From Desulfobacula sp. (lineage in GTDB: Bacteria; Desulfobacterota; Desulfobacteria; Desulfobacterales; Desulfobacteraceae): DNA of 6,326 nucleotides. This document shows positions 64-4,782 of the stretch, piece after piece. The first letter of the stretch is position 1; each line of letters opens with the position of its first letter. The translations under genes were made by a program, and so were the position numbers. Below the pieces are notes generated by a model. The model saw nothing but the letters and a program-made list of their open reading frames with translations, was not told the DNA's origin and did not search any database. Location of the stretch: the NCBI RefSeq assembly GCF_021107415.1, contig NZ_JAIOSW010000134.1, positions 1-6,326 of the forward strand, in the 5' to 3' direction.

Positions 64-2316
64 ATGGGTCTCCAATTGTGCTATATAATTGTCGGTATGC
101 TGATCTTATTTGCCATATTTGATCTGATGGTCGGTGTGACCAATGATGCGGTTAATTTTTTAAATTCATCTATCGGGTCCAAGGCTGCCCCCTTTTTCAT
201 TATCATGACCGTTGCAAGCTTGGGTATCCTGGCCGGTGTTACCTTTTCAGGCGGCATGATGGAAGTGGCGAGAAAAGGAATTTTCCATCCCCAATTTTTT
301 TCCATGCCGGAACTTTTAACCATTTTTCTGGCTGTCATGATCACGGATATCCTGCTGCTTGATCTGTTCAATACCCATGGGTTACCAACTTCAACAACAG
401 TATCCATTGTATTTGAGCTGCTGGGAGCGGCTGTAGCCCTTGCCATGATTAAGATCATGGCCGCCTCCGACAGCACTATGGCATTATGGGACTATATTAA
501 TACAGCCAAAGCCATGGCCATTGTGGGTGGCATCCTTTTATCCATTGTATTGGCCTTTTTCGCGGGAGCTTTGATGCAGTTTTTATCCCGTATGATTTTC
601 ACATTTGATTATCAGGAACGATTAAAAAAATATGGGGCGCTCTGGGGTGGCATGGCCCTGACTGCCATTACCTTTTTTATCCTTGTCAAAGGATCTAAAG
701 GGGCGACCTTCATGGATGCCGGGACTATTGCCTGGATAAAAACCAATTCTTTTGTGATCATGGCCGGTATTTTTATTGTCTCTGCCATGATCTTACAGAT
801 TCTTATATCGCTTTTTAAGGTCAATATTTTAAAACTCATTGTTCTTGTGGGAACCTTTGCTCTTGCCATGGCATTTGCAGCCAATGATCTGGTTAATTTT
901 ATCGGGGTTCCCCTTGCAGGCCTCAATGCCTTTCAAAATGCCATTGCATCCGCTGACCCTTTAAATATCACAATGACAGCTTTAAGCAAAAAGGTGCACT
1001 CCCAGACTTATATTATGCTGGTGGCAGGGCTTATCATGGTGGTGACCCTATGGCTGTCCAAAAAAGCACGAACAGTCACGGAAACGGAAATCAGCCTGGG
1101 CCAACAAGATGAGGGTACAGAAAAATTTGAGTCTATCTGGCTGTCCAGAAAAATTGTCAACATGTTTGATTTTCTATTCAACACGGTAACAAATCTGACC
1201 CCGAAAACCATTAGAGAAACCATATCCCAACGCCTTACCCCGGTTATGGAAAGCCGCGGGGCATCCCAAGCGGAAAGGCCCTCATTTGACCTGGTTCGTG
1301 CTTCAGTCAACCTGATGGTGGCAAGTATGGTTGTTTCTTTTGCCACATCTTTGAAACTGCCGTTGTCCACCACATACGTGACGTTCATGGTTGCCATGGG
1401 AACAAGTTTTTCAGACCAGGCCTGGGGCAGAGAAAGCGCGGTATACAGGGTCACGGGTGTATTAACCGTTATCGGTGGATGGTTCATGACTGCCTTTATC
1501 GCATTTGTGGTCTCATTTATTTTTGCCAATATCCTGTTCTATTTAAAAGTACCGGGATTTTTCATTTTATTTGCCTTTGCCGGATATATGATCTGGAAAA
1601 ATCACCAGAAACATAAAAGCCAGGAAAAAGACAAGGAAGAAATGAGCATTTACAACCTGCACAAGGTTGAACACTTCAAAGAATCCATATCCGAGACCTT
1701 TGATCATCTGGCTTTTCTTCTCAAAGGCATCAGGGAATCCTTTGATATCTCTTTTGATGCACTCTTCCAGGGGGATTTATATAAACTCAGAGAGGAACGG
1801 ATGCATGTCAAGCACTTCCAGAACAGTACCAATATCATCATTGCCAATGTCTTTAAGGTATTGAGATTGCTTTCAAAAGAAGATCAGGAAGTTTCCTACA
1901 ACTTTTACCAGATTATCAGGAGGCTTCAAAAACTCACCGACGGCCACAGGGATACGGTTATCCGTGCCAGCATGCATGTCAGCAACCGTCACAAGGGATT
2001 GTTAGACGTTCAAAAGTCAGAATTAAAAGAAATCAAAAAAGTTTTCTTAAATATTTTCTCTCTTGTCGAGACTGCCTTTCGGGACAAAGAAATCGTAGAC
2101 TGCCAGGAAGCGGTAGAGCAGTTTCATTATCTAAGGGAACTTGTGGATGATTTTAATGAAAACCAGATTGAAAGAATCAGGGATGATTCTTCAAAAACTC
2201 GGCTCAGCATTCTTTTTTATGCCATAAGCGGTAATTGTGTAATGATGGCAAAACAGAATGTAAAACTTCTGGACATCTTTAACGAATCCTTTAAATTGAA
2301 TCAGAAATGCTCATAA
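64..2316 (+). CDS. PiT-family inorganic phosphate permease with C-terminal PhoU-like domain
   Basis: This is a predicted inner-membrane symporter for inorganic phosphate (Pho4/PiT family, driven by H+ or Na+). The family's duplicated half-repeats are visible. The first Asn-Asp motif is VTNDAVNF near residues 25-32, and the second is AANDLVNF near 272-279. The matching re-entrant motifs are HGLPTSTT (105-112) and LPLSTT (432-437). Many hydrophobic segments lie between residues 5 and 510. Residues about 530-750 are soluble, charged and helical, resembling the PhoU/DUF47-like regulator that is often a separate gene beside PiT. The fusion explains the length of 750 residues against roughly 400-500 for plain PiT proteins. 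A long linker (about 335-405) separates the two membrane halves. The start at 64 keeps the whole first membrane helix, although its ribosome site is weak. An alternative start is Met12. The gene converges on the next one with a 3-nt gap. The family is well supported; ion coupling and the function of the PhoU-like tail are inferred. Confidence 0.9.
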   Translation: MGLQLCYIIVGMLILFAIFDLMVGVTNDAVNFLNSSIGSKAAPFFIIMTVASLGILAGVTFSGGMMEVARKGIFHPQFFSMPELLTIFLAVMITDILLLDLFNTHGLPTSTTVSIVFELLGAAVALAMIKIMAASDSTMALWDYINTAKAMAIVGGILLSIVLAFFAGALMQFLSRMIFTFDYQERLKKYGALWGGMALTAITFFILVKGSKGATFMDAGTIAWIKTNSFVIMAGIFIVSAMILQILISLFKVNILKLIVLVGTFALAMAFAANDLVNFIGVPLAGLNAFQNAIASADPLNITMTALSKKVHSQTYIMLVAGLIMVVTLWLSKKARTVTETEISLGQQDEGTEKFESIWLSRKIVNMFDFLFNTVTNLTPKTIRETISQRLTPVMESRGASQAERPSFDLVRASVNLMVASMVVSFATSLKLPLSTTYVTFMVAMGTSFSDQAWGRESAVYRVTGVLTVIGGWFMTAFIAFVVSFIFANILFYLKVPGFFILFAFAGYMIWKNHQKHKSQEKDKEEMSIYNLHKVEHFKESISETFDHLAFLLKGIRESFDISFDALFQGDLYKLREERMHVKHFQNSTNIIIANVFKVLRLLSKEDQEVSYNFYQIIRRLQKLTDGHRDTVIRASMHVSNRHKGLLDVQKSELKEIKKVFLNIFSLVETAFRDKEIVDCQEAVEQFHYLRELVDDFNENQIERIRDDSSKTRLSILFYAISGNCVMMAKQNVKLLDIFNESFKLNQKCS

Positions 2317-2319
2317 ATT

Positions 2320-2742
2320 TCAGCAATCCTGTAGCAGATCCACAAGATCTGCCGCAACAATTTTAACAACCTTGCAACACTCTTTCTCCAGCATTTCTTC
2401 TCCAAATCGTTCCCGAAGTGTTGCGCAATGTGTGGTTTCAAAATGATCAATAAATTTTTGCCTGATTTTACTCCCCAGTTCTGCCGGGATATCCCAGTTT
2501 TCTCCGGGGATGCGCCGTCCATAAAGGTGACCTATGGCAATCAGGCTTCCTGAAAGGGCACCGCAAGCCTCATCAAATGTCATCCCAAACCCGCCGCCAA
2601 AAGCAGTTGCATGAATGGCAGCCTGGGAAGTATCTTTACCCAATCCTTCTAACACTGCTACTGCAACAGCTTCAGCACAATGAAATCCGTTTTCAAAATA
2701 ATACCCTGCTTTCTCTTTGATGATACTTTTTTCTTCAATCAT
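2320..2742 (-). CDS. C_GCxxG_C_C family cysteine-rich redox protein
   Basis: This is a 140-residue soluble protein of the C_GCxxG_C_C family. These proteins carry spaced conserved cysteines and are thought to be redox-active or metal/Fe-S-binding, with no defined reaction. Visible hallmarks are HCAEAV at the N-terminal Cys (Cys22), AFGGGFGM (47-54), the ACGALSG block with Cys60, Cys106 in THCATL, and Cys122-Cys123 near the C-terminus. An extra Cys is the last residue (140). There is no signal peptide or membrane segment. The length is normal for the family. The ATG at 2742 is preceded by AGGAG (complement of 2751-2755) at 8-nt spacing, which supports this start. The gene is divergent from the LysR-type regulator at 2857, so it is the likely regulated target. 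It is convergent with the phosphate permease. The stop is TGA, but the next in-frame codons soon reach another stop, so Sec readthrough at the end is not suggested. Confidence 0.85.
   Translation of the reverse strand: MIEEKSIIKEKAGYYFENGFHCAEAVAVAVLEGLGKDTSQAAIHATAFGGGFGMTFDEACGALSGSLIAIGHLYGRRIPGENWDIPAELGSKIRQKFIDHFETTHCATLRERFGEEMLEKECCKVVKIVAADLVDLLQDC
2334..2364 (+). terminator. Possible terminator of the permease gene, inside the convergent gene
   Basis: A perfect 7-bp inverted repeat, GCAGATC / GATCTGC (2334-2340 and 2346-2352) with a 5-nt loop, begins 18 nt after the permease stop. A short TTTT follows at 2361-2364. The hairpin lies in the 3' coding end of the minus-strand gene, so the sequence may be conserved for protein reasons instead. 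The T-tract is short and displaced, which makes the call weak. Confidence 0.3.
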
Positions 2743-2762
2743 TTTCTCTACTCCTGCACTTG

Positions 2763-2768
2763 TTTATA
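2763..2768 (-). promoter_or_regulatory. Candidate -10 element of the C_GCxxG_C_C gene
   Basis: On the minus strand this reads TATAAA. At a 17-nt spacing the -35 position (2786-2791) reads TTATTT, a poor match. A weak -35 with inverted repeats centred about 49 and 70 bases upstream of the predicted start site (near 2756) would fit an activator-dependent promoter of the LysR type. This is inferred from sequence only. Confidence 0.35.
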
Positions 2769-2772
2769 TCTG

Positions 2773-2786
2773 TTTAATCGATTAAA
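2773..2786. repeat. Palindrome 1 in the divergent control region
   Basis: TTTAATCGATTAAA is a perfect 14-bp palindrome. It overlaps the proposed promoter of the LysR-type gene. The ATCGAT core shares its half-site with the neighbouring inverted repeats, making it a candidate operator. Confidence 0.5.
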
Positions 2787-2796
2787 ATAAAAAATC

Positions 2797-2813
2797 AATC
2801 GTGTCCAACGATT
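2797..2813. promoter_or_regulatory. Palindrome 2: LysR-type box (ATC-N9-GAT)
   Basis: This is a perfect 6-5-6 inverted repeat, AATCGT / ACGATT. It contains ATC-N9-GAT (2798-2812) and therefore T-N11-A, the classical binding pattern of LysR-type regulators. It lies between the divergent redox-protein and LysR genes and is the best single candidate for the regulator's primary site. Confidence 0.6.
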
Positions 2814-2817
2814 TATT

Positions 2818-2834
2818 CCGATGCAATCCATCGG
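2818..2834. repeat. Palindrome 3 in the divergent control region
   Basis: This is a perfect 6-5-6 inverted repeat, CCGATG / CATCGG, with the same arm and spacer lengths as palindrome 2. Its centre is 21 bp from that of palindrome 2, two helical turns, so both could sit on one face of the DNA under a LysR tetramer. It overlaps an alternative in-frame ATG at 2821, which argues that this ATG is leader and not the true start. Confidence 0.5.
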
Positions 2835-2856
2835 CACAAACGATAAAGGAATTAAA

Positions 2857-3741
2857 ATGGAATTTCGCCAGCTTAAAACTTTCCGTGCAGTTGCTGATAA
2901 TTTAAATTTCACAAAAACAGCCGAACAACTTTTTATGGCACAGTCTTCTGTATCAGCACAAATAAAGGCGCTTGAAGATGAACTTAAAATCAAATTGTTT
3001 GACCGGATCGGAAGACGGGTGCTGCTGACTGAAGCCGGCCGCAAACTATATGAGTATGCACGCCGCATGGAAGAGATGTCACTTGAAATCCGTTCGGAAG
3101 TATCTGGCAGCCGCTATACACGTGGCAGTCTTACCATCCGTGTGCCCGAAACACTGGCGGCCGTTTACATGCCTGATATTGTAGACCGCTTCCACAAAGC
3201 CAATCCGAAAGTCAAACTGACATTCATCAACTGTACGGATACACAGCTTAAAGAAGAATTGAATTCGGGCCGTATTGATCTGGCCTTTTTAATGACGGAT
3301 ACAATTCATTTTAAAGATGTCAATGTCCGTCTGCTGAAGACAGAAAAACTAGTCCTGACTGCAAGTCCATCCCATCCGCTTGCCTTTGAAAATAAGATAA
3401 ATTTAAAGAATTTAAACCACCAGACGGTTCTGCTTGCCAAAACCGACTGAAGTTACCGGCGAGCTTTCGAGCGGTCGCTCGAAAAATTGGATGTCACTCC
3501 CATGATACTGGAATTTTCCAGTATTAACAGCATGAAAACCTGCCTGAAAATGGGTATTGGCGTGACAATCTGCCCTGAAATATCTGTCCGGGAGGAACTG
3601 GCTGCCAGTGAACTTGCAAGTCTCAAATGGGATATACCGGATGCTGAGACATCTGTTATCATGATATGGCACGCTCAGAAATGGTGTTCACCAATTTTAG
3701 AACAATTTCTATACTTATCTGAAAAGCTGATTTCCGAATAA
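2857..3741 (+). CDS. LysR-type regulator, predicted selenoprotein (in-frame TGA = Sec198)
   Basis: This is a predicted 294-residue DNA-binding transcription factor. Residues 1-60 form the winged helix-turn-helix: FRQLKTF, then NFTKTAEQLFMAQSSVSAQI, then LFDRIGRRVLLTEAG. A linker helix (about 61-88) and the two-lobed effector domain (91-294) follow. The frame is broken once, by TGA at 3448-3450. Codons on both sides are in the same frame and both encode normal LysR sequence (LLAKTD, TGA, SYRRAFE, then SMKTCLKMGIGVTICPE). LysR relatives often have Cys at this place in a CSYR motif, and OxyR has its peroxidatic Cys199 at the equivalent point. A SECIS-like hairpin follows the TGA. OxyR's resolving Cys208 corresponds here to Ser207, but Cys126, 229, 239 and 277 are present. 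The start at 2857 is chosen because AAAGGA (2845-2850) is 6 nt upstream and the protein then starts MEFRQL, as is typical; an upstream ATG at 2821 is less likely. The divergent cysteine-rich gene is the probable target. The alternative is a nonsense-mutated pseudogene. Confidence 0.8.
3448..3489 (+). promoter_or_regulatory. Predicted bacterial SECIS element with UGA codon
   Basis: The TGA (3448-3450) is followed by a perfect 8-bp stem, TTTCGAGC (3465-3472) with GCTCGAAA (3477-3484), closing a GGTC tetraloop (3473-3476). Below it a 2-nt internal mismatch is followed by three possible further pairs (3460-3462 with 3487-3489). The loop begins 22 nt after the TGA, in the range expected for SelB-dependent recoding and about 4 nt further than in E. 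coli fdhF, whose apical loop also carries GGUC. The stem is GC-rich against an AT-rich gene and uses codons such as CGG, TCG and CTC. No bulged U like U17 of fdhF is evident. The structure is seen in the sequence; recoding is inferred. Confidence 0.7.
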
Positions 3742-4048: not shown

Positions 4049-4113
4049 TTGATAAAGATTAATTGCAAAAAGTGAAAATGAATAAAAATTATAATTAACT
4101 AAGGAGAATGACT

Positions 4114-4782
4114 ATGAAAAAAATGATTAAAGCAGGATTGTTATTCGGGTTGATGTTATTATTTGCAGGAAATGTGTGGGCATTGCCAATGGCTGGAGAT
4201 ACAGTTCAAATGAACACCGAGTGGGGTGATAATTATGGAATGAAAATCAATAATAGCACTAATACCAACACTATCGGTGATCTTTATAATACGTTCTGCA
4301 TTGAAAAAAACGAAATCTTTAATAACAATGGTATTTACAAGGTAGAATCCGTCGGATCAGTTGCCACCCTGGGAGGCACCAACTATGGTGTCTGGGAGAC
4401 AGAATCCACTACTGGTAAAACCGGTGACCCCCTATCCCAGGAAAGCATATGGCTGTATGCTTCATTTTTCAATGGCGACTTTGATAGTCTGTTTACAGGT
4501 CTCACCCATCAACAAGGTGTAGATAAAGTTCAAAACGCTATCTGGTACATGGAAGATGAGATCACCAGCAACACAGATTGGAGCCTTCTTTCCAATGGCA
4601 TTTCAGATTTCAAGGTAACAGGCTGGGATATAAAAGTTGTTAACTTAGTCGCAACGGACGGTACTGGTAATTTTCAAAGCCAACTCGTTGGTGCTCCTGT
4701 TCCGGAACCTGCTACCATAGTTCTTTTTGGAATCGGTCTTCTAGGTCTTGCCGGAATCGGAAGAAAAAGAATACAAAAATAA
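4114..4782 (+). CDS. PEP-CTERM exported protein with thioester-domain-like motifs
   Basis: This is a 222-residue secreted protein expected to be sorted by exosortase at the cell envelope, often in exopolysaccharide or floc-forming systems. Residues 1-23 are a Sec signal peptide (MKK, hydrophobic core, likely cleavage after VWA). The C-terminal tripartite signal is complete: VPEP (196-199), a hydrophobic helix (about 201-215) and a basic end (GRKRIQK). In between, the only Cys of the whole protein is Cys62 in TFCIE, and Gln140 lies in VQNAIW. These match the Cys and Gln motifs of thioester (TED) adhesin domains. The start at 4114 is preferred over ATG 4108 because AAGGAG (4101-4106) is 7 nt from 4114 but only 1 nt from 4108. 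It stands alone between a sigma-54 promoter and a strong hairpin. The exosortase is not in this window. PEP-CTERM identity is near certain; the thioester is inference. Confidence 0.92.
   Translation: MKKMIKAGLLFGLMLLFAGNVWALPMAGDTVQMNTEWGDNYGMKINNSTNTNTIGDLYNTFCIEKNEIFNNNGIYKVESVGSVATLGGTNYGVWETESTTGKTGDPLSQESIWLYASFFNGDFDSLFTGLTHQQGVDKVQNAIWYMEDEITSNTDWSLLSNGISDFKVTGWDIKVVNLVATDGTGNFQSQLVGAPVPEPATIVLFGIGLLGLAGIGRKRIQK

What the first reader, a model, noticed from the sequence alone, without database searches (positions are those of the whole stretch)
2857..3741. Candidate selenocysteine-containing LysR-type transcription regulator
A normal-length LysR protein is interrupted by exactly one TGA, with no frameshift and intact coding on both sides. 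The TGA replaces the residue that is Cys in CSYR-motif LysR relatives and aligns with peroxidatic Cys199 of OxyR (here Sec198). Known bacterial selenoproteins are mostly oxidoreductases; a Sec residue in the effector domain of a DNA-binding regulator would be a Se-based redox or ligand sensor. I do not know of a characterised example.
Basis: partly seen in the sequence, partly recalled or inferred. Interest (0 to 1): 0.92.

Follow-up and report, generated by a model that had tools for sequence, protein, structure and literature searches.

The report
LysR gene regulator containing selenocysteine
A DNA-binding gene regulator from sulfate-reducing bacteria appears to carry the rare selenium amino acid selenocysteine at its likely sensing site, in a whole family of related genes, which would make it a selenium-based sensor rather than the usual selenium enzyme.

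Summary
Confirmed and extended. ORF 2857-3741 is a full-length LysR-type regulator with one in-frame TGA at 3448. Relatives give 20 more genes with TGA at exactly this codon, 19 intact and one with a frameshift elsewhere; 60 of the 79 genome-scan loci readable there have Cys. Of the 120 listed closest database proteins, 107 (one is the window's own) end at residue 197; the other 13 continue with Cys. A hairpin follows the TGA, formed in 18 of 21 TGA genes and 0 of 60 Cys genes; the four most uniform of 100 codon columns lie in it. All four Sec-decoding genes are found in 13 of 17 relatives' genomes; the window's genome is not held. So it very probably encodes a selenoprotein. All 21 share an operator and a divergent neighbour, a Cys- or Sec-rich small protein in 20. 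It is not LysR_Se/HrsM. Equivalence to OxyR Cys199 is off by one residue. Best mechanism, inferred: Sec198, with invariant Cys126, senses an oxidant, electrophile or metal(loid). No Sec-containing LysR was found in the 2022 and 2026 reviews searched.

The parts
2857..3741 (+). Sec-containing LysR-type regulator gene (294 residues with U198)
   Evidence: Pfam HTH_1 and LysR_substrate
3448..3450 (+). in-frame TGA read as selenocysteine 198
   Evidence: 21 genes with TGA here, no TAA/TAG seen; Cys in 60 of 80 loci; 13 of 13 listed proteins that continue have Cys
3465..3484 (+). SECIS-like hairpin: 8-bp stem, GGUC loop at 3473-3476 (bases 26-29 counted from the U of UGA)
2798..2844 (.). conserved operator ATCGTGTCCAACGAT-TTATTYCGATG-N5-CATCG-N6-CGAT between the two divergent genes
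2760..2788 (+). putative lysR promoter TTGTTT-N17-TAAAAT
   Evidence: own pattern match; not reported by the stricter scan
2780..2808 (-). putative divergent promoter TTGGAC-N17-TTAATC; its -35 lies in the first operator dyad
   Evidence: own pattern match; not reported
2320..2742 (-). divergent C_GCAxxG_C_C putative redox protein (140 aa, no in-frame TGA), likely target gene
   Evidence: Pfam PF09719 68.2 bits, TIGR01909 51.6 bits; partner conserved

Best explanation
The gene encodes a selenocysteine-containing LysR-type regulator. SelB reads the UGA with the help of the hairpin just downstream. Sec198 sits immediately before helix 199-210 of the effector domain and, with invariant Cys126, forms a reactive Se/S site. 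An oxidant, other electrophile or soft metal(loid) reacts there (Se-S or Se-metal bond), the effector domain changes shape, and the tetramer on the operator switches on the divergent gene while holding down its own promoter. Without selenium, translation would stop at 197 residues and the regulator would be lost or crippled. Shown by sequence: family, TGA, hairpin, machinery in relatives, operator, partner. Inferred: Sec insertion itself, a Cys126-Sec198 pair in space, chemistry at Sec198, direction of regulation, selenium gating.
For: TGA/Cys column. Codon uniformity: E205 GAG 20/20, R206 CGG 19/19, S207 TCG 18/18, E209 GAA 15/15 are the four highest of 100 testable columns, median 0.575. Seven stem pairs: 97.3% of 147 cells paired, 3 pairs changed on both sides, 3 to 14 of 500 shuffles reach the measures. 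Hairpin in the minimum-energy fold of 18 of 21 TGA genes, 0 of 60 Cys genes. Over cut-off: selB 16/17 (control 2/14), tRNA-Sec 15/17 (control 5/14), selA 16/17 (control 1/14), selD 18/20 (control 2/14). Cys126 in 50 of 50 rows of the Sec clade and its relatives, 0 of 40 other rows. Operator upstream of 21 of 21: 19-26 of 26 bases, shuffled upstreams never above 18 in 4200; 18 sites within 3 mismatches in 20 genomes, reversed control 0. In G002, where the C_GCAxxG_C_C gene lies 1.9 kb away, the better operator lies at that gene; the one extra site, in G001, lies upstream of another C_GCAxxG_C_C gene with no LysR read beside it. Divergent partner: 12 C_GCAxxG_C_C, 6 CMD/AhpD-like with TGA, 1 MerB-like with 2 TGA, 1 DGC, 1 unnamed. 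Model pLDDT 87.5, helix 199-210.
Against: No protein or selenium measurement. The window's own genome is not held. The window hairpin alone is not unusually stable (z -1.11, 24 of 200 shuffles as good) and Rfam gives no SECIS hit. L009, L016 and L096 take another minimum-energy fold, and three loops differ from GGUC (AGUU, AGGU, GGUU). Two hairpin codons are less uniform: L208 CTC 16/20, F204 TTC 14/19. L096 has a frameshift. tRNA-Sec control rings over the cut-off in 5 of 14, so that test alone is weak. No OxyR-type Cys at 208. The distance Cys126-Sec198 was not measured. Operator-like sites (19 or more of 26) also stand before 9 of 26 Cys-LysR genes, so operator and circuit are not tied to Sec. 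14 of 21 partners have no TGA in the matched stretch; in L011 the partner has no Cys in the read sequence.
Confidence: 0.6

Rival explanations
1. Selenium-status switch: Sec is there mainly so that full-length regulator is made only when selenium is available; the residue has no sensing chemistry.
For: Truncation at 197 residues follows from the code; 7 of 21 partner genes carry in-frame TGA; all 6 CMD partners beside Sec-LysR have TGA, none of the 3 found beside Cys-LysR (26 Cys loci searched).
Against: 60 of 80 loci keep Cys at the column, which points to thiol/selenol chemistry; 14 of 21 partners have no TGA in the matched stretch; a separate LysR_Se gene is over its cut-off in 18 of 20 genomes.
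Confidence: 0.15
2. Narrower form of the best explanation, counted within it: a soft metal(loid) or organometal sensor, in which Sec198, Cys126 and other Cys bind Hg, As or an organic form and switch on a detoxifying partner.
For: MerB-like partner with two TGA; two CMD partners match the AhpD part of an arsenite methyltransferase/AhpD selenoprotein model (41 to 42 bits, cut-off 510); the 2026 review ties several unusual selenoproteins to Hg and As (passages).
Against: 1 of 21 partners is MerB-like and it is below the SaoL cut-off (43.7 vs 140); C_GCAxxG_C_C has no substrate known to me; only part of the neighbours was annotated.
Confidence: 0.25
3. Pseudogene or functional truncation: TGA is a real stop and a 197-residue protein is the product.
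For: 107 of 120 listed database proteins are annotated as ending there; one gene (L096) has a frameshift.
Against: Codon-position pattern after the TGA is like that before it; all 21 stops are TGA; hairpin constraint.
Confidence: 0.03
4. UGA is read by Cys or Trp insertion or general readthrough, not Sec.
For: None found; not tested separately.
Against: SECIS-like hairpin; Sec-decoding genes in relatives; selD itself has one TGA in 17 of the 18 genomes in which it was found.
Confidence: 0.02

Closest known systems
LysR_Se / HrsM (NCBIfam NF040786), selenium-metabolism LysR regulator
   Same: LysR-type regulator found in selenium-using prokaryotes (PMC5322559, passages); top NCBIfam model for the window protein, by 2.6 bits over GltC
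   Different: 159.8 bits against a cut-off of 250; a separate gene is over the cut-off in 18 of 20 genomes; four such genes form their own clade and have Ser at the column
OxyR
   Same: LysR fold, reactive residue at the start of the same helix region; OxyR entries are among the structural matches
   Different: Sec198 aligns with His198, not Cys199; Cys208 aligns with Leu208; OxyR model 107.1 bits against 329
YeiE (sulfite-sensing LysR)
   Different: Tied with other LysR effector domains; about 20% identity; YeiE model 137.3 bits against 480
Bacterial selenoproteins with Cys/Sec pairs
   Same: UGA, downstream hairpin, Cys homologues, Sec-decoding genes in relatives
   Different: The table of PMC9312934 (read) has no LysR, and the word LysR does not occur in the held text of PMC13188914; nearest regulator-like entry that I saw in both is an FmdB-family putative regulatory protein

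Membership tests
Bacterial selenoprotein gene | in-frame UGA with coding conserved on both sides | tested here: met
   one of 21 genes (L096) has a frameshift as well
Bacterial selenoprotein gene | Cys in homologues at the UGA column | tested here: met
   60 of 80 loci Cys, 17 TGA, 2 Ser, 1 unread; 13 of 13 listed proteins that continue have Cys
Bacterial selenoprotein gene | SECIS-type hairpin shortly after UGA | tested here: met
   18 of 21 TGA genes, 0 of 60 Cys genes; window alone z -1.11; binding by SelB not tested
Bacterial selenoprotein gene | selA, selB, selC, selD in the same genome | tested here: inconclusive
   window genome not held; relatives 16/17, 16/17, 15/17 and 18/20, all four in 13 of 17
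Bacterial selenoprotein gene | selenium incorporation | not testable with these tools
   needs 75Se or mass spectrometry
LysR-type transcriptional regulator | HTH_1 plus LysR_substrate domains | tested here: met
   77.9 and 138.9 bits
LysR-type transcriptional regulator | divergent target with dyad operator | tested here: met
   binding not tested
LysR_Se / HrsM (NF040786) | score over 250 bits | tested here: not met
   159.8 bits; separate gene over cut-off in 18 of 20 genomes
OxyR | Cys199 and Cys208 | tested here: not met
   Ser199 and Leu208 by sequence alignment
OxyR | peroxide-driven activation | not testable with these tools
   needs experiment

The most novel reading that the evidence does not exclude
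A family of selenocysteine-containing transcription regulators in Desulfobacterales and kin, in which a selenolate paired with Cys126 is the sensing element and in which UGA decoding also ties regulator synthesis to selenium supply.
Probability: 0.5. Interest if true: 0.93.

Novelty: new variant of a known kind. Interest (0 to 1): 0.86.

Why it matters
Reported prokaryotic selenoproteins are mostly thought to be involved in redox reactions (abstract start of PMC9312934). A selenolate in the presumed sensing pocket of a DNA-binding regulator would show selenium used for signalling, offers a defined operator and target to test it on, and gives a lead to the function of C_GCAxxG_C_C proteins. 106 database proteins besides the window's own end at this residue (their stop codons were not seen), so a family of this size may stand in databases as truncated regulators.

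Tried and rejected
Orthology to LysR_Se: rejected; ten Cys or Ser relatives also score 142 to 175 bits, under 250. OxyR Cys199 equivalence: rejected as stated. Pseudogene: rejected. Rfam search of the window: two chance-level lncRNA matches only. Viral contigs: 13 pattern matches, no relative. Plasmids: among the 5000 records kept (limit reached) all best places are under 60% identity. Phylum-wide sample: 1 of 395 genomes at E<=1e-78, the one already known. MerB-like protein of L007 against PDB: no hit, so whether its two TGA stand for catalytic Cys of MerB is open. Promoter scan 2700-2900: one match at chance level; the promoters listed are my own looser patterns: lysR-type matches starting 95-109 bases before the ATG in 10 of 21 loci (matches elsewhere in L006 and L008 not counted), divergent-type in 11 of 21.

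Literature: searches. PMC9312934: passages and the whole table section. PMC5322559, PMC11097638, PMC13188914, PMC12013277, PMC8318568, PMC5029168: outputs of term searches only. Other papers: listings only. Haft and Gwadz 2023 and Haft and Tolstoy 2025 are not held, so a mention there is not excluded; the 2026 review that cites both has no occurrence of LysR in the held text.

Full report
What is there. The ORF at 2857-3741 encodes a LysR-type regulator with one in-frame TGA at 3448-3450, HTH and effector domains both over Pfam cut-offs. The window also holds a phosphate-transporter-like gene, a divergent C_GCAxxG_C_C gene, a PEP-CTERM protein gene and a BamB-like repeat protein gene.

The TGA is a conserved feature. 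Of 80 loci from one genome scan, 17 have TGA at this codon, 60 Cys, 2 Ser, and 1 could not be read. A search of 389 genomes of the same order found a TGA gene in 16 of the 32 genomes with a match at E<=1e-60, 3 of them new (L091, L095, L096). Five of the Cys-type genes of that search were read and have Cys; the others are reported stop-free but were not read at the column. With the window that makes 21 genes, all TGA, none TAA or TAG. Two of the new ones lie on contigs of 3.4 and 5.0 Mb; the latter (L096) has a frameshift near codon 38. Of the 120 proteins listed (of 1074 found), 107 end exactly at residue 197, one of them the window's own; the 13 that continue all have Cys. On a 70-row tree parsimony needs 4 changes between Sec and Cys, 2 of them forced by well-supported branches, with Cys rows nested among Sec rows.

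The hairpin. A stem with loop GGUC lies at bases 18-37 counted from the U of UGA. The four most codon-uniform of 100 testable columns are E205, R206, S207 and E209, all inside the hairpin, each 100% against a median of 57.5%; two other hairpin codons, L208 (80%) and F204 (74%), are less uniform, at places where G-U or A-U pairs keep the stem. Seven pairs are formed in 97.3% of cells and three have changes on both sides; 3 to 14 of 500 shuffles reach the measures. The hairpin is in the minimum-energy fold of 18 of 21 TGA genes (not L009, L016, L096) and of 0 of 60 Cys genes; 6 or 7 of the 7 pairs can form in 21 of 21 TGA genes and in 1 of 60 Cys genes; the loop is GGUC in 18 of 21. Against this, the window hairpin alone is not exceptional. 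Its resemblance to the E. coli fdhF SECIS loop is recalled, not from a call.

Sec machinery. In the genomes of the first 17 TGA loci: selB over the cut-off in 16, tRNA-Sec in 15 (14 at 63.7 bits or more, G013 at 49.2 with a cut-off of 47), selA in 16; selD in 18 of 20 genomes. Misses: selB G006; tRNA-Sec G005 and G006; selA G013; selD G005 and G008; so 13 of 17 have all four. Most of these are metagenome-assembled drafts by their titles, which may explain misses. Of the 14 control genomes 2, 5, 1 and 2 pass these cut-offs, so tRNA-Sec alone is a weak test. For the three later genomes only selD was sought (3 of 3). The window's own genome is not held, so this is by kinship.

Regulatory anatomy. 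Upstream and divergent from the 21 genes stand: C_GCAxxG_C_C in 12 (in L002 as the third gene, 1.9 kb away), a CMD/AhpD-like gene with an in-frame TGA in 6 (second gene in L005 and L006), a MerB-like gene with two TGA in 1, a DGC gene in 1, and in L011 only an unnamed family (Pfam of some). All 21 share an operator of two dyads, 19 to 26 of 26 bases like the window's; shuffled upstream regions reach at most 18 in 4200 trials. Within 3 mismatches it occurs 18 times in 20 genomes, in 17 of them, and the reversed control never; G011, G013 and G334 have only poorer sites. In G002 the listed site lies at the displaced C_GCAxxG_C_C gene; the one extra site, in G001, lies upstream of another C_GCAxxG_C_C gene (80.7 bits) with no LysR read beside it. 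So the divergent gene is very probably the target. Of 26 Cys-LysR loci, 8 have a C_GCAxxG_C_C and 3 a CMD neighbour by the same search, all without TGA (three more by looser clustering), and 9 have an operator-like site of 19 or more: the circuit is wider than the Sec residue.

Sensing site. Cys126 is present in all 50 rows of the clade with the Sec genes and their nearer relatives and in none of the 40 other rows, groups that I set from the tree; Cys229 in 49 of 50 but also 26 of 40; Cys239 and Cys277 in 24 and 23 of the 24 rows of the Sec clade (18 Sec, 6 Cys rows), in 1 of 4 sisters each, and not elsewhere. In the model (pLDDT 87.5, 54 rows) residue 198 precedes helix 199-210. Two alignments place Sec198 opposite OxyR His198, Ser199 opposite Cys199 and Leu208 opposite Cys208. 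Hence it may work like a Cys-based LysR sensor but is not an OxyR. Chemistry, direction of regulation and selenium gating are inference.

Known or not. LysR_Se/HrsM is a selenium-linked LysR subfamily (PMC5322559), but it is a different gene here. The selenoprotein table of PMC9312934 has no LysR, and the word does not occur in the held text of the 2026 review PMC13188914 or of PMC12013277. Two further relevant papers could not be read. I rate it as a new variant: a known regulator type with a selenocysteine at its presumed sensing site, in 21 genes read here and, judging by truncated database proteins, probably over 100.

Noticed in passing
L007 7066-7800 (minus): MerB-like protein (Pfam MerB 65.6 bits, SaoL 43.7 below cut-off 140) with two in-frame TGA, divergent from the Sec-LysR; possible double selenoprotein.
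   Followed up: partly
L005, L006, L009, L010, L015, L111, upstream of LysR: CMD/AhpD-like genes with an in-frame TGA (motif CYPU in the four read) divergent from Sec-LysR; the three CMD genes found beside Cys-LysR (L097, L099, L101) have none.
   Followed up: partly
L005 1943-2437, L006 7163-7909, L011 7524-7877, L023 6274-6972 (all minus): Unnamed protein family in the divergent operon; no Pfam match in the 3 tested and no NCBIfam match in the 2 tested.
   Followed up: partly
L096 and L111 (genome G268): The LysR gene has a frameshift near codon 38 in a 5.0 Mb contig: assembly error or decay.
   Followed up: no
L136 799-823: Second operator copy in G001, upstream of another C_GCAxxG_C_C gene and with no LysR read beside it.
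   Followed up: partly
window 64-2316: PHO4-type phosphate transporter-like gene, also beside the pair in L001 and L004.
   Followed up: no
window 4108-4782: PEP-CTERM sorting-signal protein gene.
   Followed up: no
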